This document shows positions 25,584 to 37,234 of a DNA stretch of 64,000 bases, one piece after another. The notes beneath the pieces were generated by a model, which worked only from the letters and a program-made list of their open reading frames with translations, had not been told where the DNA came from and did no database searches. Source of the DNA: Acaryochloris sp. IP29b_bin.137 (GTDB taxonomy: Bacteria; Cyanobacteriota; Cyanobacteriia; Thermosynechococcales; Thermosynechococcaceae); NCBI RefSeq assembly GCF_028285745.1, contig NZ_JANQOP010000232.1:1-64000 (forward strand), in the 5' to 3' direction. Every line of letters starts with the position of its first letter. Position 1 is the stretch's first letter. The translations under genes and the position numbers were made by a program.

Positions 25584-26339
25584 ATGCAGCGTGTCGCTCA
25601 GTTTTTTTCGAGACAACCCCCTCTAACCCATAACATCTTGAGTATTGGCTTTCGGGGCGCTGGGAAAACTGTATTTCTGGCAGGGAGTTATACCTCTTTA
25701 CACTTCAACCGCAAAAAAGCTCGACTCCACCAAGAATGGTTGGATTGCCAAGATGCAGAGTCTCATCAGAAGATGGACCAACTGCTAAACTACATCACCC
25801 AAACCCATCAGTATCCGCCGCCAACGTTAAAGGTCACGGATTTTAACTTTAGTGTTAAAGTTCGCACCCTCTGCGGCGTTAAGACCCGTTGCCATTTGCA
25901 TTGGTGGGACATTCCAGGGGAGTTTTGTCAGCCCAATAATGCCGACTTGCAGTTGTTACTGTTTAGTTCCCATGCCTGCTGTCTACTGATTGATGCCCCA
26001 GCCTTTGTCAATGACCCTCCCTATCAGCAGAGGATTGAATCAGTTATGCAACAGTTGGCGCAATTCCTCCCTCAATCTCAAGCCAATCGTCCTCATTACC
26101 CTTTGGCTGTGATTTTAACCAAATTTGATTTACTGCAAACGGAGCTGAGTCGGGGACAACTGAAACAACAGCTTAAACCCTTTGTCCAGGATTTGCGCAG
26201 CCGTCAGATTAACTCCCACGGCTTCACCTCTGCCATTCCACTGATTTCTTTTGGAGCAAGTGTGACGTTGCATCCCCAAGGTACGGGTGCGCCTTTTCGG
26301 TGGCTGATCGCTGAATTGAAAAAAACTGAACAGCGATGA
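25584..26339 (+). CDS. P-loop GTPase-like protein
   Basis: 251 residues. The Walker A motif is GFRGAGKT (residues 22-29), a DxxG-like motif is in WWDIPGEFC, and the G4-like motif is TKFD in AVILTKFDLL. The rest does not match a named GTPase family I recognise; it may belong to the double-GTPase type seen in prokaryotic conflict systems. It lies at the left edge of the CHAT/TIR island and on the same strand, 170 bases upstream of the CHAT-TIR-AAA gene. Confidence 0.6.
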   Translation: MQRVAQFFSRQPPLTHNILSIGFRGAGKTVFLAGSYTSLHFNRKKARLHQEWLDCQDAESHQKMDQLLNYITQTHQYPPPTLKVTDFNFSVKVRTLCGVKTRCHLHWWDIPGEFCQPNNADLQLLLFSSHACCLLIDAPAFVNDPPYQQRIESVMQQLAQFLPQSQANRPHYPLAVILTKFDLLQTELSRGQLKQQLKPFVQDLRSRQINSHGFTSAIPLISFGASVTLHPQGTGAPFRWLIAELKKTEQR

Positions 26340-26510: not shown

Positions 26511-28649
26511 GTGATAGCAGATACTTCGGTGAAGAAAATCCTGATTTTGGCAGCAAATCCTAAGGATACTCAGTCCCTGCGCTTGGATGAAGAGGTCCGT
26601 ACCATTCAAGAAAAACTTAAACGCTCCAAGCTGCGGGATGACTTTGAGATTGTCTCTTGCTGGGCCGTCAGAATTGAGGATTTACAGCAAGCATTATTAG
26701 ACGAGAATCCCCAAATTGTGCATTTCTTGGGGCATGGTGCGGGAAAAGAAGGCTTGGCGCTGGAAGATGGGCAAGGGCGAGCCAAATTAGTGAGTTCGAG
26801 GTCGCTGGCCAAGCTGTTTAAGTTTTTCCAGGATAAGGTTGAATGTGTTTTACTGAATGCTTGTTATTCCAGTGTGCAGGCAGAGGTGATTTACCAGCAT
26901 ATTGATACCGTGATTGGCATGAAGCAGGCCATTGGTGATCAAGCTGCGGTGAAGTTTGCAGGTGGTTTTTATAGTTGTTTGGGGGCGGGACGCTCCTACC
27001 GAGATGCCTATGAGTTTGGCTGTAATGCCATTGATTTGGAGGGATTGCCAGATCACTTAGTCCCTGTGTTGCAGCAGAGGGTGAAAACAACGGCCCAGGC
27101 CCATGTCTTTATTAGCTATCGCAGTGAAGCGCCGGATCAAGCTTTGGCGGAGGCATTGAATGCAGGACTGCAACAGGCTGGGCACCGAACGTTTATGGCG
27201 GCAGCCAGTTTGAACTTGGGGGATAACTGGCCCCAACGGATCGATCAAGAGCTGGAGCGGTGTGATTACTTTATCCTGCTGCTATCGGCTCAGTCGGCGA
27301 CCAGCGAGATGGTGACGGAGGAAGTTCGCAGGGCAAGGGATCTGCGAGATCAACGGTCGGAACCAAGGCCGATTATTTTGCCGATCCGAGTCAATTTTCC
27401 GATGGATTCACCGTTGAATTATGAGCTGCGGGGATATTTGAATCGGATTCAGCAGCGGGAATGGCGAACCCCCGATGATACGCAGCCGATTTTGGCGGAG
27501 GTGCTAAAACTGCTCGCGAATGGCGAGGTCCCTGCTCCAATCGTTTCTCCTGAGTCAGCGCCCATTCTTGAGGAAACACCGGATCAGCCGCCCTTGCCTG
27601 TGGCGGAACCCGATTTAATGCGGGAACCGGGTGGGGTGGTGAGTTTAAAGTCGAGTTTGTATGTGGAACGACCACCGATTGAGGCGGATTGTTTTGCTGA
27701 GATTGAACAACCGGGGGCTTTAATTCGGATTAAAGCCCCTCGGCAGATGGGTAAGACATCATTGATGGCGAGAATTTTGCACCATGCTCAAGCACAAGGC
27801 TATGCCGCGATTCCTCTGAGCTTTCAGCGGGCGGATAATCAGTTGTTTTCAAATTTGGACCAATTTTTGCGGTGGTTTTGTGAGCAGGTTGGGCGAAAGC
27901 TGAAGAAGTTTGACCAGATTGATGAGTTTTGGAGTGGGTTTGGCAGTAAGGATAAGTGCAATGCCTATTTTGAAGAATGCCTATTAGAAGAGCTAGATCA
28001 GCCGTTGGTATTGGGATTAGATGAGGTTGATTTGGTCTTTCCTCATCGGCAGGTGGCGGATGACTTTTTTGGTCTGCTACGGTCCTGGTATGAATCGGCC
28101 CGGTATGGGGATATGGGCAGTGAACTATGGAGTAAGTTGCGATTAGTGGTGGTGCATTCAACGGAAGCCTATGTGCCCCTAAATATTAATCAGTCACCGT
28201 TTAATGTGGGTAAAAACGTTGAACTCACGGACTTTACGGCTGGGCAGGTACAGACTTTAGCCCGCTGCTATGGGATAGATCAGTTAGAAAGCACCGTAAA
28301 TATGTTGTTGACTTTGGTGGGGGGGCATCCTTTTTTGGTTCGGAAAGCGCTCTATCATCTGCGGCGAAACGAATTTACCGTTGCAGAGTTTAAGAAAACC
28401 TCTGCAACTGAGGCAGGTGTTTATAGTGATCATTTACGGCGTCATCTATTAAATCTTCAACAGTACCCTAATTTGGCTGGAGCACTGCGACAGGTTGTGA
28501 TGAGAAATACGCCTGTAAATTTGGAGTCGGAAGCAGCATTTAAGCTAGAAAGTATGGGACTGATTTCTTGGCAGGGCAATGAGGCATTACCTCGGTGCGA
28601 TGTATATCGCCAGTATTTTCGTGATCATTTGAATTTAGGAAAGGCTTAA
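26511..28649 (+). CDS. CHAT-TIR-AAA fusion protein
   Basis: 712 residues, GTG start. Residues 8-190 are a CHAT-type caspase-like protease with both catalytic residues in place: IVHFLGHGAG (His75) and CVLLNACYS (Cys118). Residues 196-335 are a TIR domain (HVFISYRSEAPDQALAEAL.., CDYFILLLSAQSATSEMVTEEVRRA) with glutamates at the expected NADase position. Residues 375-710 are an AAA-like ATPase (AAA_35 type): Walker A APRQMGKTS (409-417) and Walker B LVLGLDEVD (Asp504, Glu505). Protease, NAD-cleaving and STAND-like sensor modules in one chain suggest a self-sacrifice or defence switch. The next gene carries a paralogous ATPase domain. Confidence 0.85.
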   Translation: MIADTSVKKILILAANPKDTQSLRLDEEVRTIQEKLKRSKLRDDFEIVSCWAVRIEDLQQALLDENPQIVHFLGHGAGKEGLALEDGQGRAKLVSSRSLAKLFKFFQDKVECVLLNACYSSVQAEVIYQHIDTVIGMKQAIGDQAAVKFAGGFYSCLGAGRSYRDAYEFGCNAIDLEGLPDHLVPVLQQRVKTTAQAHVFISYRSEAPDQALAEALNAGLQQAGHRTFMAAASLNLGDNWPQRIDQELERCDYFILLLSAQSATSEMVTEEVRRARDLRDQRSEPRPIILPIRVNFPMDSPLNYELRGYLNRIQQREWRTPDDTQPILAEVLKLLANGEVPAPIVSPESAPILEETPDQPPLPVAEPDLMREPGGVVSLKSSLYVERPPIEADCFAEIEQPGALIRIKAPRQMGKTSLMARILHHAQAQGYAAIPLSFQRADNQLFSNLDQFLRWFCEQVGRKLKKFDQIDEFWSGFGSKDKCNAYFEECLLEELDQPLVLGLDEVDLVFPHRQVADDFFGLLRSWYESARYGDMGSELWSKLRLVVVHSTEAYVPLNINQSPFNVGKNVELTDFTAGQVQTLARCYGIDQLESTVNMLLTLVGGHPFLVRKALYHLRRNEFTVAEFKKTSATEAGVYSDHLRRHLLNLQQYPNLAGALRQVVMRNTPVNLESEAAFKLESMGLISWQGNEALPRCDVYRQYFRDHLNLGKA

Positions 28650-28674
28650 CTGGGGCAAGAGGAGAGATCTAAAG

Positions 28675-30528
28675 ATGCAAAAAAATCAATTCGGCTCCAA
28701 CTTTACCTACACCGTAGGAGGCAGTCTCAAACAAGGTGACTCAAGCTATGTAATCCGTGCAGCAGACCAAGCATTTTATAAGGCTTTGAATAACGGTGAG
28801 TTTTGCTATGTTCTCAATTCTCGACAGATGGGCAAATCTAGTTTGCGAGTGCGAACGATGCAAAGACTGCAATCCGAAGGAATTAAGTGTGGGGTTGTGG
28901 ATATTACTTCGATTGGAAATCATGATGTCACAGCAGATATGTGGTACCTGGGGGTAGCCCGACGTCTAGTAAGGAGTTTTGGAATAAAGATTAATACTCG
29001 CCAGTGGTGGGAATCTCAAGTCGATTTATCACCGTTGCAAAGGTTTGGAGAGTTTTTTGAGTCGATTTTGCTGACCCACATTCCGGAAAAGTTGGTAATC
29101 TTTATTGATGAAATAGATAGCATTTTGCGTCTCGACTTCAAAGATGATTTTTTCGCATTAATTCGTAGTTTTTATGAACTGAGAGCTGAAAACCTATCTT
29201 TTGAACGGCTGACGTTTGCATTGTTAGGCGTTGCTACCCCTTCAGATTTAATTCAAGATAGAAACCGAACTCCTTTTAATATTGGAAAAGCGATTGAGTT
29301 AAAAGGTTTCCAGATAGAAGAAGCTACAGCATTAACCACTGGTTTGGCTAGAAAAGTTGACAGCCCTTATGCAGTTTTACAAAATATTTTAGCTTGGACT
29401 GGTGGACAGCCATTTTTAACCCAAAAGCTCTGTCGATTGGTTGCAGAGGCTGACTTCATTACATTGGGGAATGAAGCCCAAACAATTGAAAAGTTGGTCA
29501 GAACTCAAATTATTGAGAATTGGGAAATCCAGGACGAGCCGGAACATTTACGAACTATTCGAGATCGTATTCTTCGTGATGAAGAAAGTTCAGGACGACT
29601 TTTGGGATATTATCAGGATATCCTAAAAGAAGGAATGATTATTAGTTTTACTGATGACTATGCTCAACAACAGTTGCTTCTTTCTAATTTGATTATTCGC
29701 AATCATGGCTACTTAAAAGTTTGCAGCAAAATTTATGCAGAAGTCTTTAATCCTGAATGGATAGAGAATACTTTGGAGAAATTACGCCCCTATGCAGAGA
29801 GCATAAGAGCCTGGGAGAAATCTGAGCAGATGAATCATTCGTTCTTATTACAAGGAAAGGGGTTGAAAGAAGCCCAATTATGGGCTGCAGGAAAAAGTTT
29901 ACGCGACTTGGATTATGAATTTTTAGCAGCGAGCCAATTGGAAGAAAAACAAAAAATTGAGCAAGCTCTTGTATTCGAATTCAAGTCCAAGCAAATATTG
30001 GAGAAGGCTAATAAAATAGCCAAGCGACGTCTGCAGATTGGAATGCTTATTCTAGGAATAGCTTTATCTGCAGCACTTGGAGCAATTCAGCTAGCGAAAA
30101 GTAGTGTAGAAGCTAAATATAAAGCAGATGAGGTGACTAAGGAGGTTAAGAGAAAACTTGACCGATCAGCGAATCAACTGGCATTCTTGAACTCCCAAGT
30201 TGCCAACGCTATGAATAAGTTGAATAAGTCAAGAACAGCTTTAGAAAAGTCAAGGAATGATAAAAGAATGGCCAAACAAGAAGCTGATTTTGTTAAAGCC
30301 AATTTAAATAAAGCTATTTGGGATTCTAAACAATCAATCACCTCGCTTAAACAGAAACAATTGACCGAAAAAGAAAAAACTGCTCAAGCTCTAAAGCTTG
30401 CTAAAATAGCTAATTCCTCAAAAAAAATAGCCCTTATTCAATACAATAAAATCAAAAAAGAAGTTAAGAAAAAAATACCGAATTGCATAATACTGAAAAG
30501 AAATATTTTCTTACTAAGAACCATTTGA
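28675..30528 (+). CDS. AAA-like ATPase with membrane helix and coiled coil
   Basis: 617 residues, with the ribosome binding site AGAGGAGAG upstream. Residues 10-360 are an AAA_35-like ATPase: Walker A LNSRQMGKSS (48-56), Walker B LVIFIDEID (Asp145, Glu146), and RTPFNIGKAIELKGF, which parallels SPFNVGKNVELTDF in the previous protein. One membrane helix lies at about 453-472 (IGMLILGIALSAALGAIQLA), followed by a Lys-rich coiled coil to the end. The last 46 bases overlap the CHAT gene in the -1 frame. The region is strikingly AT-rich compared with its neighbours. In related proteins the coiled coil leads into a CHAT domain, so the stop at 30526-30528 may be bypassed by frameshifting. Confidence 0.85.
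   Translation: MQKNQFGSNFTYTVGGSLKQGDSSYVIRAADQAFYKALNNGEFCYVLNSRQMGKSSLRVRTMQRLQSEGIKCGVVDITSIGNHDVTADMWYLGVARRLVRSFGIKINTRQWWESQVDLSPLQRFGEFFESILLTHIPEKLVIFIDEIDSILRLDFKDDFFALIRSFYELRAENLSFERLTFALLGVATPSDLIQDRNRTPFNIGKAIELKGFQIEEATALTTGLARKVDSPYAVLQNILAWTGGQPFLTQKLCRLVAEADFITLGNEAQTIEKLVRTQIIENWEIQDEPEHLRTIRDRILRDEESSGRLLGYYQDILKEGMIISFTDDYAQQQLLLSNLIIRNHGYLKVCSKIYAEVFNPEWIENTLEKLRPYAESIRAWEKSEQMNHSFLLQGKGLKEAQLWAAGKSLRDLDYEFLAASQLEEKQKIEQALVFEFKSKQILEKANKIAKRRLQIGMLILGIALSAALGAIQLAKSSVEAKYKADEVTKEVKRKLDRSANQLAFLNSQVANAMNKLNKSRTALEKSRNDKRMAKQEADFVKANLNKAIWDSKQSITSLKQKQLTEKEKTAQALKLAKIANSSKKIALIQYNKIKKEVKKKIPNCIILKRNIFLLRTI
30469..30475 (+). other. A7 slippery run at the AAA/CHAT gene junction
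   Basis: Seven consecutive A follow AAG in the frame of the upstream gene (codons AAA AAA ATA). A -1 slip, or transcript with one extra A, moves ribosomes into the frame of the downstream CHAT gene and gives EVKKKNTELHNTEKKYF, which reads as a natural coiled-coil continuation. Confidence 0.5.
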
Positions 30529-31607
30529 GATTAACTCAAAAGGCACTGGTTGATAATGTAGGTGATACGCCTGAAAGAATTTATAGAACTACTGGCCAAA
30601 ATCCAGCAATTATATATATAAATTTTAATTCATATATAAGTGCTAATAATTCTGAAATAGACCAGAGAAGGTTAGGAATTTATCTAATTACATCCAAAGG
30701 GCAATGGCCAATCGAAACACCTCAAGATGCAACGGAAGAAAATGTGTTAAAAACTTTGGATGCTTACAAGGTGGAAATAGAAAAACCATATACTTTTATA
30801 GAGACTAGAGAAATAGGATATAAGCTATATAGCTGGTTAATATCACCAGTAGAAGAAGAGCTTAGAAAGCAAAACATTAACAATCTAGTATTTGTTATGG
30901 ATTCTGAATTGCGTCCTATGGCTCTATCTGCATTATATGATGGTGAAAAATACTTGATCGAGAAATACAGTATTGGTATTATGCCTGGGCTATCTCTCGT
31001 TAGCAATCGTCATGTAAACCTGAAGAATTCCACGGTATTGGCAGCAGGTATTTCTAAAGAAAAACCTCCTTATCCTCCACTTAAATATGTAAAGAATGAG
31101 CTTGAAAGCATTAGTCAAAGTTGGCCAGGAAAAGTTGATGTATTACTAGATCGTGAGTTTACTTTTAGTAATCTTAAGCAGCAAGGCCATCAAATTGTTC
31201 ATTTCGTTACGCGAACAGAATTTAGTCGTGTTAAACCAGAGCTTTCAACAATCAATAGCTGGGATAAGGAGTTGACTGTTGATGATTTTAGTAAGCTAGG
31301 GTGGTTCGATTCAAGAGTTAATTTACTTGTTCTTAGTGGAGGTTCAACAACTGTTGGGAATGCAAAGTATAAGTTTGGATTTGCTGGATTTGCTATTCAA
31401 TCAGGGGTAAATTCAGTACTTTCAAGCTTGTGGGATCTTGACGATCAATCTACTGCTACATTAATAGGAGAATTCTACAATCAACTCAAAGTAGCTCCAA
31501 CTAAATCTGAGGCACTTCGGCGAGCACAGGTGTCTATGATCAAGAATCCAGATTTTCGGCATCCGGCTCATTGGGCTAGTTATACAATTATAGGTAATCC
31601 TTGGTAA
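30483..31607 (+). CDS. CHAT-fold protein lacking catalytic His and Cys
   Basis: 374 residues from a TTG at 30483; no good ribosome binding site. After a short helical lead, LVDNVGDTPERIYRTTGQNPAIIYINF begins a CHAT domain that ends HPAHWASYTIIGNPW, the usual C-terminus. The catalytic histidine motif (normally HFATHGxF) reads HFVTRTEF, with Arg at 31212-31214. The cysteine motif (normally LSAC) reads LSGG, with Gly at 31341-31343. It is therefore probably a pseudoprotease acting as a scaffold or sensor. It is likely the C-terminal part of the upstream ATPase made by -1 frameshifting, or a split gene. Confidence 0.75.
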   Translation: MHNTEKKYFLTKNHLRLTQKALVDNVGDTPERIYRTTGQNPAIIYINFNSYISANNSEIDQRRLGIYLITSKGQWPIETPQDATEENVLKTLDAYKVEIEKPYTFIETREIGYKLYSWLISPVEEELRKQNINNLVFVMDSELRPMALSALYDGEKYLIEKYSIGIMPGLSLVSNRHVNLKNSTVLAAGISKEKPPYPPLKYVKNELESISQSWPGKVDVLLDREFTFSNLKQQGHQIVHFVTRTEFSRVKPELSTINSWDKELTVDDFSKLGWFDSRVNLLVLSGGSTTVGNAKYKFGFAGFAIQSGVNSVLSSLWDLDDQSTATLIGEFYNQLKVAPTKSEALRRAQVSMIKNPDFRHPAHWASYTIIGNPW

Positions 31608-34670: not shown

Positions 34671-35230
34671 TCACGCACTCAAAAAACACTGACTGTCTCA
34701 ACTCTATGATTGAGCGATCGCCTTAACGCCACAACATTCACTTCAGAGTTTACAGGCAGTTGATCTGAACTCTTGTTGAGTTGTTGAAAATTATATACAG
34801 AAATCTGAAGCAAATAAAAATGAGTCTCAATAGTTGAGTTGGCCCTGATTATAATCCTCGAAGTCTTCTACCTGATTGGGTTTTAGAAGTGGTCGCGGCA
34901 TAACTTGTCTATGGTGATGACCATACTTTTCTTATTCCAATAGGAATCAGTAATATTTTTTTCTTGATGAGATTATTATTATTTATATTTTTGGCTAAAT
35001 TTTAGTTAAGTGGGAACCTTTAATTCCAATAAACCCTTACCTGAAAGGAGTTATAGGTATTCCGATATATTTCTGACTGTTCTTTTATTGAGAATGACTT
35101 TCTTTAAAAGTTTTCTGTTTATTCACATCTGAGTGATATTCTCGATAAGGCTAAATAGCTTATGCAGTGTCATTGGCAATTAAGCACAATCCATTAGCCA
35201 TTGAGTACAAAATTTGGAGTGTTACAACTT
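34671..35230. other. Long AT-rich upstream region of the RTX gene
   Basis: About 560 bases with no gene. It becomes strongly AT-rich at 34930-35110 (TTATTATTATTTATATTTT near 34971), where the promoter of the RTX gene is expected. No clear hairpin. Confidence 0.5.
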
Positions 35231-37234
35231 ATGTCTGCCCCAACCCCTGCTGAAATCGCTGCTGAACGCTTTGAAGAACTGGTTGCTGGACTAGATCTTG
35301 AGAACGCGATTGTAGGTACTGCTGATGACGATAGACTTCCAGGTTTGTCAAATGATGACATCATCGTTGGTTTGGGTAGAAATGATTTGATAGTTGGCCG
35401 CAAAGGTAATGACATCCTGATTGGGGATAATGCACCTGAAGGTGGCGAAGGCTCTGAAGGCGGAGAAGGTTCCGAGGGCGGCGAAGGCTCCGAGGGCGGC
35501 GAAGGCTCCGAGGGCGGCGAAGGCTCTGAAGGCGGTAATGACACTATCTCCGGTGGCGATGGAGATGACACCATTTTGGGTGGCGATGGAGATGACAAAC
35601 TGAAAGGCGGTTCTGGTGATGATTTCATCATTGGAGGCAATGGAGTCGATCACATCTACGGTGGTGCTGGAGATGACCTCATCGTGGGCGGCATCCCTGG
35701 CGAAAGCAGCTCCGCTGGTGAAAGTGGCGAAGGCTCTGAAGGCGGTGAGGGTGCCGAAGGGGGAGAAGGCTCTGAAGGGGGAGAAGCTGGTTTCGATGAC
35801 ATCATCAATGCTGGAGCAGGTAACGACGTCATTGATGCGGGTGAAGGTGCCAATAAAGTTTATGGCGGCACTGGTAATGACATTATTGATGCCGGTCACC
35901 AAGGTGATCTCGTTTACGGAGGTCTAGGTGATGACTACATTGATGGTGGTGAAGGCAGTGAAGACGGTGCTGACACCATTTCGGGCGGTCGAGGCAACGA
36001 CACCGTTTTTGGTGGCCAAGATGATGATGTTATTCGTGGCGGCCATGGTAATGACGTTCTGACGGGTGGTGAAGCTGGTGATGGCTCCGAAGGTGGAGAA
36101 GGCTCTGAAGGCGGAGAAGGCTCTGAAGGTGGAGAAGGTTCCGAGGGTGGAGAAAGCTCCGAAGACGGAGAAGGTTCCGAGGGTGGAGAAGGCTCTGAAG
36201 GCGGAGAAGGCTCTGAAGGGGGAGAAGGTTCCGAGGGTGGAGAAGGCTCTGAAGGCGGAGAAGGCTCTGAAGGTGGAGAAGGTTCCGAAGGTTCCGAAGG
36301 TGGAGAAGGCTCTGCTGATGGCAACGACTACATCGACGGTGGTGCTGGCAATGACACTATCTCCGGTGGAGAGGGTGATGACACCTTGAAAGGCGGCTCT
36401 GGTGATGATTCCATCGTTGGAGGCAACGGGACCGATTACATCTACGGTGGTGCTGGAAATGACACCATTGTGGGCGGCATCCCTGGCGAAAGCAGCTCCG
36501 CTGGTGAAAGTGGCGAAGGCGACGAAGGCGGTGAGGGCTCCGAAGGGGGCGAAGGCTCTGAAGGGGGTGAAGTTGGCTTTGCTGACATCATTGATGCTGG
36601 GGCTGGCAACGACGTCATTGATGCGGGTGAAGGCGCCAATCAAATCTATGGCGGTACTGGCCATGACATTATTGATGCGGGTCATCAAGGCGACTTAGTC
36701 TTCGGTGGTGCTGGAAATGACACGATCAATGGTGGTGAAGGCAGTGAGGATGGTGCCGATACCATCTATGGTCAACGGGGTAACGATGAGATTGCGGGTG
36801 GTATTGGAGACGACTATCTGAATGGGGGGCGCGGCCATGATATCCTCACGGGCCAAGCAGGTAATGATGTGCTGGTTGGCGGTCATGGACCTGATTCTTT
36901 TGTCTTTGATTCAGGTGAATCCTTTGCCATAGAAGACTTAGGAACTGACACCATCCTTGATTTCTCTACCCAAGACACCCTTGTTTTGAGTCTTAGCACA
37001 TTCACTGCGCTAAACAGCTCAGCAGGCACAGGTTTCAGTGTTGATACTGAGTTTGAGGTGGTTGGCAGTGATAGCGATGCAGCCTCCAGTACTGCCATCA
37101 TCGTTTACAGTTCTCAGTCTGGGAGCTTGTTCTATAACGAAAACGGTAGTTTGGATGGTCTAGGTGCCGGGGCTACATTTGCCATTCTCAATGGTGCTCC
37201 ATCTCTGTCAGCAAACAACTTTGAACTGATTTAG
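35231..37234 (+). CDS. RTX-type calcium-binding secreted protein with GEGSEG linkers
   Basis: About 667 residues from the ATG at 35231 (the frame opens at 35201 from a weaker start). It has many hemolysin-type nonapeptides (GGxGNDxI; for example [22 protein letters not shown]) that fold as calcium beta-rolls. These are separated by acidic Gly/Glu/Ser linkers of GEGSEG repeats. Two copies of a 262-codon unit are visible. The C-terminal part ([31 protein letters not shown]) is the common end of RTX proteins secreted by type I systems without a cleaved signal. No protease or lipase domain is present, so a surface or adhesive role is likely. No type I secretion gene is in the window. Confidence 0.85.
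35438..35535 (+). repeat. 18-bp GEGSEG coding repeats, tract 1
   Basis: About five in-frame copies of an 18-base unit encoding GSEGGE, with synonymous drift (GGCTCTGAAGGCGGAGAA / GGCTCCGAGGGCGGCGAA). Part of the RTX gene. Confidence 0.9.
35534..36785 (+). repeat. 786-bp-spaced direct duplication inside the RTX gene
   Basis: The block starting GNDTISGG at 35534 recurs starting GNDYIDGG at 36320. Shared landmarks such as [17 protein letters not shown] (about 35685 and 36471), [16 protein letters not shown] and [11 protein letters not shown] are all offset by 786 bases. Nucleotide identity is high. Confidence 0.85.
36083..36313 (+). repeat. 18-bp GEGSEG coding repeats, tract 2
   Basis: About thirteen in-frame copies of the same GSEGGE unit, with rare variants (SSEDGE). 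It sits between the two duplicated RTX blocks and is a likely site of length variation by slippage or recombination. Confidence 0.9.

What the first reader, a model, noticed from the sequence alone, without database searches (positions are those of the whole stretch)
26511..31607. CHAT-TIR-AAA protein paired with AAA/pseudo-CHAT proteins
One gene fuses an intact CHAT protease, a TIR domain and an AAA-like ATPase. The next carries a paralogous ATPase plus membrane helix and coiled coil, and the third is a catalytically dead CHAT. An active/inactive protease pair sharing ATPase modules suggests a sensor-effector switch, perhaps anti-phage or programmed cell death. CHAT, TIR and AAA_35 families are known; this exact arrangement I have not seen described.
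Basis: partly seen in the sequence, partly recalled or inferred. Interest (0 to 1): 0.8.

Follow-up and report, generated by a model that had tools for sequence, protein, structure and literature searches.

The report
Paired NTPase switch with dead protease
This cyanobacterial locus is one example of a widespread two-gene molecular switch, in which a membrane receptor protein (here ending in a protease-like domain that has lost its cutting site) is paired with a partner carrying potential cell-killing domains; the two-gene switch itself appears not to have been described.

Summary
The proteins are real: P0001 (26511-28649) is CHAT-TIR-NTPase with intact CHAT dyad and TIR glutamate; P0002 (28675-30528) is a paralogous NTPase plus TM and coiled coil; P0003 (30483-31607) is a CHAT without His or Cys. 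Two corrections. Genes 2 and 3 are one gene with a frame break at an A7 run: four relatives (two genera) encode both parts as single ORFs, and their CHATs are dead too (His lost 5 of 5, Cys 4 of 5; 45 of 45 other CHATs compared keep both). And the locus belongs to a large two-gene system: A (output domains on AAA_35a) and B (AAA_35b, usually TM, then sensor domains) occur together in 122 of 194 genomes (A only 4, B only 2), often adjacent, and co-diverge beyond within-genome shuffling. Outputs include TIR, kinase, CHAT, cyclase, HTH; sensors WD40, TPR, GAF, CHASE2, periplasmic-binding, pseudo-CHAT. The fold is STAND (CED-4/Apaf-1-like). Most likely B is a receptor whose dead CHAT binds a ligand, probably outside the cytoplasm, and switches A's effectors by ATP-dependent co-assembly (inferred). 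Defence is untested; no defence-island signal was seen. No description was found in the papers searched.

The parts
26511..28649 (+). gene A: CHAT-TIR-AAA_35a output NTPase, 712 aa (GTG start)
   Evidence: 66% (best segment) in Leptolyngbya sp. FACHB-36
26526..27083 (+). CHAT protease domain (residues 6-191), His75 and Cys118 present
   Evidence: AF2 model against SAVED-CHAT 8tl0: Z 21.9, rmsd 2.6 over 185 residues; dyad positions
27099..27530 (+). TIR domain (residues 197-340), predicted catalytic Glu271
   Evidence: SPARTA TIR 8qlp Z 16.3; SARM1 6o0u Z 15.2; Glu271 kept in 32 of 33 A-type TIRs
27606..28646 (+). AAA_35a STAND NTPase module (residues 366-712); Walker A GKTSL at 414, Walker B DEVD at 504
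28675..30528 (+). gene B, 5' part: AAA_35b NTPase + TM + coiled coil, 617 aa; ends out of frame
28702..29979 (+). AAA_35b NTPase core (residues 10-435); Walker A GKSSL at 53, Walker B DEID at 145
30031..30087 (+). predicted membrane helix (residues 453-471), 6 K/R on the N side against 3 on the C side
   Evidence: hydropathy and charge count only
30469..30475 (+). A7 run where the reading frame breaks; frame 0 opens at 30468
   Evidence: with single-ORF relatives
30810..31598 (+). pseudo-CHAT domain; His replaced by Arg244 (31212-31214), Cys by Gly287 (31341-31343)
   Evidence: AF2 model close to Csx29 (Z 26.6) and separase (Z 26.0)

Best explanation
The locus is a cognate pair of STAND-type NTPases. 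Gene B is the receptor: a cytoplasmic AAA_35b NTPase, one membrane helix, a coiled coil and a C-terminal sensor domain, here a CHAT fold that has lost its protease site and serves as a binding module, predicted on the far side of the membrane. Gene A is the output: an AAA_35a NTPase carrying a CHAT protease and a TIR domain. Signal binding to B would alter its nucleotide state and let B and A co-assemble, as sensor and executor NLRs do, which clusters and switches on the TIR (NAD+ cleavage or signal synthesis) and the CHAT protease, giving death or dormancy of the cell. Shown by computation: the pair, its conservation and co-divergence, the division of labour, folds, intact and lost sites, and B-CHAT as one gene in relatives. 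Inferred: physical A-B assembly, topology, ligand, enzymatic activities, outcome. In this genome B is broken by a frame shift at A7, so the sensor part is either lost, made by slippage, or broken only in the assembly.
For: Co-occurrence: both 122, A only 4, B only 2, neither 66 of 194 genomes (lists compared by hand; Fisher p 3e-44, not corrected for phylogeny); both 46, neither 12, one alone 0 of 58 in the overlapping first sample. Adjacency: 68 of 109 A matches have a B within 6 kb downstream; of the 73 pairs fetched, 63 lie within 200 bp and 40 overlap or lie within 30 bp. Co-divergence: r 0.818 over 73 pairs; swapping partners within genomes gives mean 0.458, maximum 0.681 in 5000. Division of labour: TIR in 34 of 85 A N-termini and 0 of 90 B tails; WD40-like in 0 of 85 and 54 of 90. 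Sensor domains on B: WD40, TPR, GAF, CHASE2, Peripla_BP_6. STAND fold. P-loop Lys kept in 88 of 89 A and 93 of 94 B. Among 50 CHATs the dead dyad is confined to B-linked ones. Charge bias N-in in 53 of 63 B proteins with a TM.
Against: The window's gene B is not an intact ORF. 41 of 109 A matches had no B within 6 kb downstream on the same strand (how many lie at contig ends was not counted). Co-divergence fits joint inheritance of neighbours as well as contact; the within-genome control does not separate these. WD40 or CHAT beyond a membrane helix is unusual, and the topology rests on hydropathy and charge counts; 26 of 89 B proteins have no such helix, the CHASE2 protein L139 among them. Exceptions to the division of labour: three A proteins carry about 190 aa after the NTPase, L114 and L210 carry AAA_35b at the C-terminus, and L132 has a kinase in the B tail. 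No activity or binding is shown.
Confidence: 0.55

Rival explanations
1. One reading: the active CHAT of A and the dead CHAT of B/gene 3 form a cFLIP-like protease pair that acts as an anti-phage sensor-effector switch.
For: Both domains lie in one locus; the same combination occurs in L194 (CHAT-AAA_35a with AAA_35b-pseudoCHAT). By lineage, two of the three known pseudo-CHAT B lineages partner a CHAT-bearing A, while CHAT-bearing A proteins are 12 of 73 pairs. I raised the odds from 0.10 to 0.15 when I counted by lineage.
Against: The two CHATs are of different subfamilies with only E 0.22 between them. The third lineage (three genomes of one genus) partners kinase-like A proteins. In kin of A (L010, L011, L013) B carries WD40. 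No defence-island signal.
Confidence: 0.15
2. The window copy is a decaying pseudogene: gene B was broken by an indel in A7 and the locus no longer signals.
For: Frame break in a homopolymer; four relatives intact; gene B has the largest A-minus-B GC difference of 73 pairs (0.487 against 0.378).
Against: Both halves stay open over 617 and 374 codons; P0003 has no stop and keeps conserved CHAT positions down to its last residues. Loss of the dyad is not decay, since intact relatives lack it too. The genome is a draft of 373 contigs, so an assembly error is possible.
Confidence: 0.3
3. Programmed slippage at A7 makes two products of gene B: a short membrane NTPase without sensor and a full-length receptor.
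For: A7 lies exactly where the second frame becomes open (30468) and a -1 slip would join the frames.
Against: The four relatives are single ORFs. The zero-frame codons AAG AAA AAA ATA do not form a canonical tandem-slippage heptamer (recalled rule), and A7 is short for transcriptional slippage (recalled).
Confidence: 0.08
4. The pair is an ordinary environmental signalling system, not a death or defence system; TIR and CHAT act as regulatory enzymes.
For: Other pairs carry kinases, a guanylate cyclase domain and HTH outputs and CHASE2, GAF or periplasmic-binding sensors; the window's neighbours are mostly housekeeping-type genes.
Against: TIR, CHAT and trypsin-like outputs are typical death effectors in other systems (recalled; PADLOC CHAT and TIR models match P0001).
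Confidence: 0.3

Closest known systems
nSTAND2 two-gene counter-invader system (PMC8195603, section 15 read whole)
   Same: Two adjacent genes, each with a STAND NTPase core, one fused to variable effectors; predicted hetero-multimer.
   Different: There one STAND has eroded NTP motifs and carries mostly GT4 or HEPN effectors. Here both P-loops are kept (88 of 89, 93 of 94), effectors include TIR, CHAT, kinase and HTH, and the partner carries sensors and usually a TM. The term AAA_35 does not occur in that paper.
Plant paired NLRs and TIR-NLR resistosomes (recalled; structures RPP1 7crc, NRC4 9cc9)
   Same: A sensor and an executor STAND as neighbours; TIR-STAND order as in A; domain folds match RPP1, NRC4 and CED-4. 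A dead enzyme on the sensor resembles an integrated decoy.
   Different: Single TM and probable extracytoplasmic sensor in B; bacterial AAA_35 family; no LRR match.
Histidine kinase/response regulator two-component systems (recalled)
   Same: Works like: interchangeable sensors on one protein, interchangeable outputs on the partner, several paralogous cognate pairs per genome.
   Different: No histidine kinase core or receiver matched in P0001-P0003; both partners are STAND NTPases.
Csx29/TPR-CHAT (Craspase) and SAVED-CHAT
   Same: CHAT folds: P0003 resembles Csx29 and separase, P0001 CHAT resembles SAVED-CHAT.
   Different: No Cas or SAVED match in the three proteins or the eight neighbouring ORFs scanned with Pfam; P0003 lacks the catalytic dyad.
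Avs and other antiphage STAND proteins
   Same: Effector-STAND order; Avs3 and Avs5 appear in the fold searches.
   Different: Avs is one protein with a C-terminal sensor (recalled); here sensor and effector are split over two NTPases. No PADLOC model named Avs is among the matches of P0001-P0003 at E up to 0.1.
MoxR-vWA and DO-GTPase conflict systems (PMC7159879, passages seen)
   Same: NTP-driven switch with variable effectors, preponderant in multicellular prokaryotes.
   Different: No MoxR, vWA or VMAP match in P0001-P0003; the words AAA_35 and CHAT do not occur in that paper.

Membership tests
AAA_35 (PF14516) | score above Pfam cut-off 27 bits | tested here: met
   P0001 452.4 bits, P0002 101.4 bits
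STAND NTPases | STAND/Cdc6-type fold with P-loop and Walker B | tested here: met
   model 366-712 against 2qen Z 21.1, 2fna 20.5, NRC4 18.1, CED-4 17.6, Apaf-1 15.6; motifs. P0002 itself was not modelled; it rests on 26% identity to P0001
CHAT proteases | CHAT fold and His-Cys dyad, P0001 | tested here: met
   His75 kept in 13 of 14, Cys118 in 14 of 14 A-type CHATs, window included; activity not testable
CHAT proteases | His-Cys dyad, P0003 | tested here: not met
   R244 and G287; 5 of 5 B-linked CHATs lack His, 4 of 5 lack Cys
TIR NADases | TIR fold and catalytic Glu | tested here: met
   SARM1 TIR Z 15.2; Glu271 in 32 of 33; its assignment as catalytic is by a recalled SARM1 pattern; activity not testable
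nSTAND2 two-gene system | one STAND with eroded NTP-binding motifs | tested here: not met
   P-loop Lys 88 of 89 (A) and 93 of 94 (B); Walker B Glu 93 of 94 (B) but 55 of 89 (A); the window has it in both
nSTAND2 two-gene system | GT4 or HEPN effector | tested here: inconclusive
   none in P0001-P0003; the tally over 75 A N-termini shows 25 of 37 families, no GT4 or HEPN among those shown
nSTAND2 two-gene system | two adjacent genes with STAND cores | tested here: met
Antiphage defence system | location among known defence genes | tested here: not met
   100 of 314 eligible flanking ORFs, and 42 window ORFs as control, against PADLOC: no family matched more than 2 members in either set; one DO-GTPase2-like gene adjoins the window pair. 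PADLOC models for CHAT and TIR do match P0001 itself
Antiphage defence system | phage resistance | not testable with these tools
   needs expression and infection
Craspase (Cas7-11/Csx29) | Cas7-11 beside the CHAT gene | tested here: not met
   the eight neighbouring ORFs scanned have no Cas match at E up to 1e-5

The most novel reading that the evidence does not exclude
Cyanobacteria possess a second kind of two-component signalling: paired STAND NTPases, a membrane receptor NTPase (B) with interchangeable sensors and a partner NTPase (A) with interchangeable outputs, running as several insulated cognate pairs per genome. Proteases that lost their active site have been recruited as receptors on B, perhaps more than once.
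Probability: 0.45. Interest if true: 0.85.

Novelty: new variant of a known kind. Interest (0 to 1): 0.62.

Why it matters
If A and B work as inferred, a sizeable part of cyanobacterial signalling (A and B together in 122 of 194 genomes sampled, often several copies each) runs on NLR-like NTPase pairs that link envelope or metabolite sensing to TIR, CHAT, kinase, cyclase or DNA-binding outputs. That would give a tractable bacterial model of paired NLRs, a concrete candidate for how cyanobacteria trigger cell death, and a clear case of a dead protease turned receptor.

Tried and rejected
Chance adjacency: rejected. Two CHATs as recent paralogues: rejected (E 0.22). A conserved third gene: single-linkage clustering of flanking ORFs gave clusters spanning at most 18 loci, whose identity I did not look up; the DO-GTPase2-like gene upstream of A has no match in the other fetched pair loci. 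Defence island: no signal, with a small control from one genome. Phage copies: P0002 has no match in 50,697 phage records; P0001 was not searched there. Single origin of B-linked pseudo-CHATs: unresolved. The reduced tree puts the window CHAT with same-genus TPR-CHATs on a starred branch; holding the five together costs 13 log units, p-AU 0.074, while a linker motif shared upstream of the CHAT argues for kinship. A PDB sequence search with the P0003 profile found nothing up to E 0.01. Promoter and terminator scans: promoter-like sites 10 against 11.9 in shuffles, terminator-like 8 against 4.7; not used. Literature: ten searches; PF14516 in no held paper; AAA_35 with cyanobacteria listed 12 papers, of which I opened one (PMC11119718, one passage: AAA_35 as an accessory domain of 2.80% of the extended cyanobacterial sigma factors counted there). 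Most subscription papers are not in the library.

Rows dropped and limits: I copied coordinates by hand, leaving out rows that cover only the CHAT or TIR part and rows that are tail fragments or cross-matches to A; the list was itself cut. overlap the 58-genome sample, include the window's genome, and scored only part of the first-look candidates per genome (at most 11 and 9). The 73 pairs were fetched because they looked paired; they include loci of the similarity search, three from the targeted B-CHAT search (L194-L196), and close relatives. The CHATs are mostly best matches to P0003, not a random set; one search used 27 of those 50. Alignment A2 left out 2 of 77 B tails. Of 134 flank ORFs selected, 100 were aligned and scanned. 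One search counts TIRs above 80 bits only (33); one search counts 34 at E 1e-5. The kinase label comes from an in-house profile seeded on L103; Pfam gave Pkinase in 15 of 75.
Full report
WHAT IS THERE. The three reading frames exist as described. P0001 (26511-28649) has CHAT, TIR_2 and AAA_35 domains. P0002 (28675-30528) starts 25 bp later and has AAA_35, a hydrophobic helix (453-471) and a charged tail. P0003 (30483-31607) is CHAT only. No nSTAND, NACHT or NB-ARC family was listed for any of the three at E up to 1. The window lies in a 5.5 Mb draft genome (373 contigs, 88% complete) with 17 CHAT matches on 14 contigs and 12 AAA_35 domains, six of high and six of low Pfam score; these correspond to the A and B types described below.

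GENES 2 AND 3 ARE ONE GENE. P0002 reads in frame 1 and P0003 in frame 0. Frame 0 has a stop at 30465-30467 and opens at 30468, at an A7 run (30469-30475); frame 1 ends at 30528. In four other genomes the two parts form one ORF: L103 (1026 aa), L194 (982), L195 (1002) and L196 (1061), each AAA_35b-TM-coiled coil-CHAT and aligned with P0003 from its linker to its last residue. L103, L195 and L196 are one genus, L194 another. The search behind this covered 388 genomes at E up to 1e-64. Whether the break is mutation, assembly error or programmed slippage cannot be told here.

THE DEAD CHAT IS A FEATURE, NOT DECAY. Among 50 distinct CHAT domains (mostly best matches to P0003), 45 of 45 that are not linked to B keep both His and Cys, while all five B-linked ones lack His (R, T, Q, P, V) and four lack Cys. 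The fold is retained: the P0003 model (mean pLDDT 86.4, 13-sequence alignment) matches Csx29/TPR-CHAT (8eey Z 26.6) and separase (5fby Z 26.0). The same list holds the transmembrane anti-sigma factor DdvA (8rot Z 20.3), a lead that the held literature did not let me follow (one paper listed, not opened). The CHAT of P0001 is of another subfamily: it models onto SAVED-CHAT (Z 21.9) and its profile also finds that protein by sequence (5.4e-20). It has His75 and Cys118, and the dyad is kept in 13 of 14 (His) and 14 of 14 (Cys) A-type CHATs. The four B-linked CHATs other than the window's form a group with 94/77 support; the window's placement is unresolved. Two recruitments of a CHAT, each losing its dyad, are possible but not shown.

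A TWO-GENE SYSTEM. P0001 and P0002 each matched in the same 46 of 58 genomes, and neither in the other 12. In a wider, overlapping sample of 194 genomes of the class, with profiles of the NTPase alone, A was in 126 and B in 124; both in 122, A only in four (G084, G115, G119, G125), B only in two (G067, G069) (lists compared by hand). In the first sample 68 of 109 A matches had a B downstream on the same strand within 6 kb, 53 within 300 bp; 41 had none. Ten small genomes of one genus (g6) carry exactly one A and one B each, not adjacent. In 73 fetched pairs the gap was at most 200 bp in 63, and in 40 the genes overlapped or lay within 30 bp. NTPase distances of A and B correlate (r 0.818); shuffling partners only within genomes (16 genomes, 51 pairs) lowers this to 0.458 on average and never above 0.681 in 5000 trials. 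Partners therefore diverged together; this fits specific contact, though joint inheritance of neighbours contributes.

DIVISION OF LABOUR. Pfam tallies over 75 A N-termini: TIR_2 30, protein kinase 15, CHAT 13, guanylate cyclase 3, several HTH families and sigma-70 region 4 (3), one trypsin. Ten shorter N-termini scanned singly gave several mostly weak HTH-type matches, and two had no match. Over 75 B tails: WD40 in 49. Ten non-WD40 tails scanned singly: TPR in three, GAF in three (one with PAS), CHASE2, a periplasmic-binding protein and a kinase in one each, nothing in one. With in-house profiles TIR was in 34 of 85 A N-termini and 0 of 90 B tails, WD40-like repeats in 0 of 85 and 54 of 90. 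The nearest kin of the window's A NTPase are L009 (75%), L012 (74%), L010, L011 and L013; the B partners of L010-L013 carry WD40, and that of L009 ends at 645 aa before any repeat. The window's B NTPase is closest to two of the same set (L012 59%, L009 58%), against 51% and 47% for L194 and L103. So this pair kept its NTPases and differs from its kin in the sensor. Of five pseudo-CHAT B proteins, two (two lineages) pair with a CHAT-bearing A and three (one genus) with a kinase-like A.

FOLD AND SITES. The P0001 model (mean pLDDT 86.3) places residues 366-712 among STAND and Cdc6/Orc ATPases: 2qen Z 21.1, NRC4 resistosome 18.1, CED-4 17.6, Apaf-1 15.6. Plant TIR-NLR RPP1 tops the Foldseek list, but with rmsd near 21 over the whole chain, so the domains match, not their arrangement. 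TIR resembles SPARTA TIR-APAZ (Z 16.3) and SARM1 (Z 15.2), and Glu271 is kept in 32 of 33. P-loop lysine is kept in both families; the Walker B glutamate is nearly invariant in B (93 of 94) but only 55 of 89 in A, which suggests that B is the hydrolysing partner and A often only binds nucleotide (inference). The window has the glutamate in both.

TOPOLOGY. 63 of 89 B proteins have a hydrophobic helix just after the NTPase, with more K/R on the N side in 53, equal in 8, fewer in 2. This favours a cytoplasmic NTPase and an extracytoplasmic tail. It fits the periplasmic-binding tail of L017 and the amidase-annotated tail of L215, which both follow such a helix, and the three GAF-tailed B proteins scanned have no predicted helix there. 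The CHASE2 protein L139 does not fit neatly: the scan found helices only after its CHASE2 domain. All five pseudo-CHAT B proteins have the helix; in L195 the K/R counts are equal. The prediction uses hydropathy and charge only.

SPREAD AND CONTEXT. Pairs occur on Nostoc plasmids, including a CHAT-TIR-AAA_35 gene followed with a 1-bp overlap by its B gene on pTCL26-01_A, and on an Abditibacteriota plasmid outside cyanobacteria. No phage record matched P0002. The window's neighbours are a methyltransferase, DUF2358, alanine dehydrogenase, an NAD-binding protein, a DO-GTPase2-like protein, a ferredoxin/lactamase-fold protein, HcyBio and a 2OG oxygenase. Flanking genes of other pairs show no enrichment of PADLOC families over the window control; the control is small and from one genome.

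MECHANISM. Most likely B senses through its tail and A acts through its head, with the two NTPases assembling in a nucleotide-dependent way. For this locus the outputs are a protease and a TIR enzyme, so the consequence would be cell death or dormancy; for others it would be phosphorylation, cyclic nucleotide synthesis or transcription. Pairing, conservation, fold and site status are computed; assembly, topology, ligand, activity and outcome are inferred.

KNOWN OR NEW. The nearest published system found is nSTAND2 (PMC8195603, section 15 read), which has the two-gene logic but an eroded partner and other effectors. The passages seen in PMC7159879, PMC8195603, PMC10907252 and PMC11119718 do not describe an AAA_35 pair; the last notes AAA_35 on some cyanobacterial sigma factors, which fits the sigma-70 region 4 outputs seen here. 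The ten searches listed under Tried and rejected found no description. CHAT, TIR, AAA_35 and STAND are all known; the sensor/output NTPase pair across cyanobacteria and the dead-CHAT receptor appear undescribed in that library. I therefore rate it a new variant of a known kind.

Noticed in passing
25584-26339 (+): DO-GTPase2-like gene (PF19993, 1.1e-10) directly upstream of gene A; GTPase-centric conflict systems were reported nearly completely absent from cyanobacteria (PMC7159879, passage). No match in the other fetched pair loci.
   Followed up: partly
28675-31607: Gene B is unusually AT-rich: GC 0.378 (P0002 part) and 0.356 (P0003 part) against 0.487 for gene A, the largest A-minus-B difference of 73 pairs.
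   Followed up: partly
L107 7447-9723: A CHAT-TIR-AAA_35 protein whose CHAT has lost the His but kept the Cys, with its B gene on the opposite strand.
   Followed up: no
L114 5124-9212 and L210 5830-11664: Proteins with AAA_35b at the C-terminus after about 990 and 1550 residues, the reverse of the usual B order.
   Followed up: no
L096 3853-5520, L138 6746-8416, L160 4150-5790: A-type proteins with almost no N-terminal domain but about 190 residues after the NTPase.
   Followed up: no
L216 4971-9369: An A/B pair (TIR-AAA_35a and AAA_35b) on an Abditibacteriota plasmid, AP024153.1: the system is not confined to cyanobacteria.
   Followed up: no
P0003 model: Strong fold match to the transmembrane anti-sigma factor DdvA (8rot, 8rw5, Z about 20), perhaps another CHAT-like sensor.
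   Followed up: partly
35201-37234 (+): Protein with many Gly-Ser-Glu-Gly repeats and calcium-binding-like repeats (label recalled, not scanned), in a stretch of strong GC skew.
   Followed up: no
L018 514-1143 and L019 9962-10819: Short CHAT domains of the P0001 type in genes of 209 and 285 aa without AAA_35.
   Followed up: no
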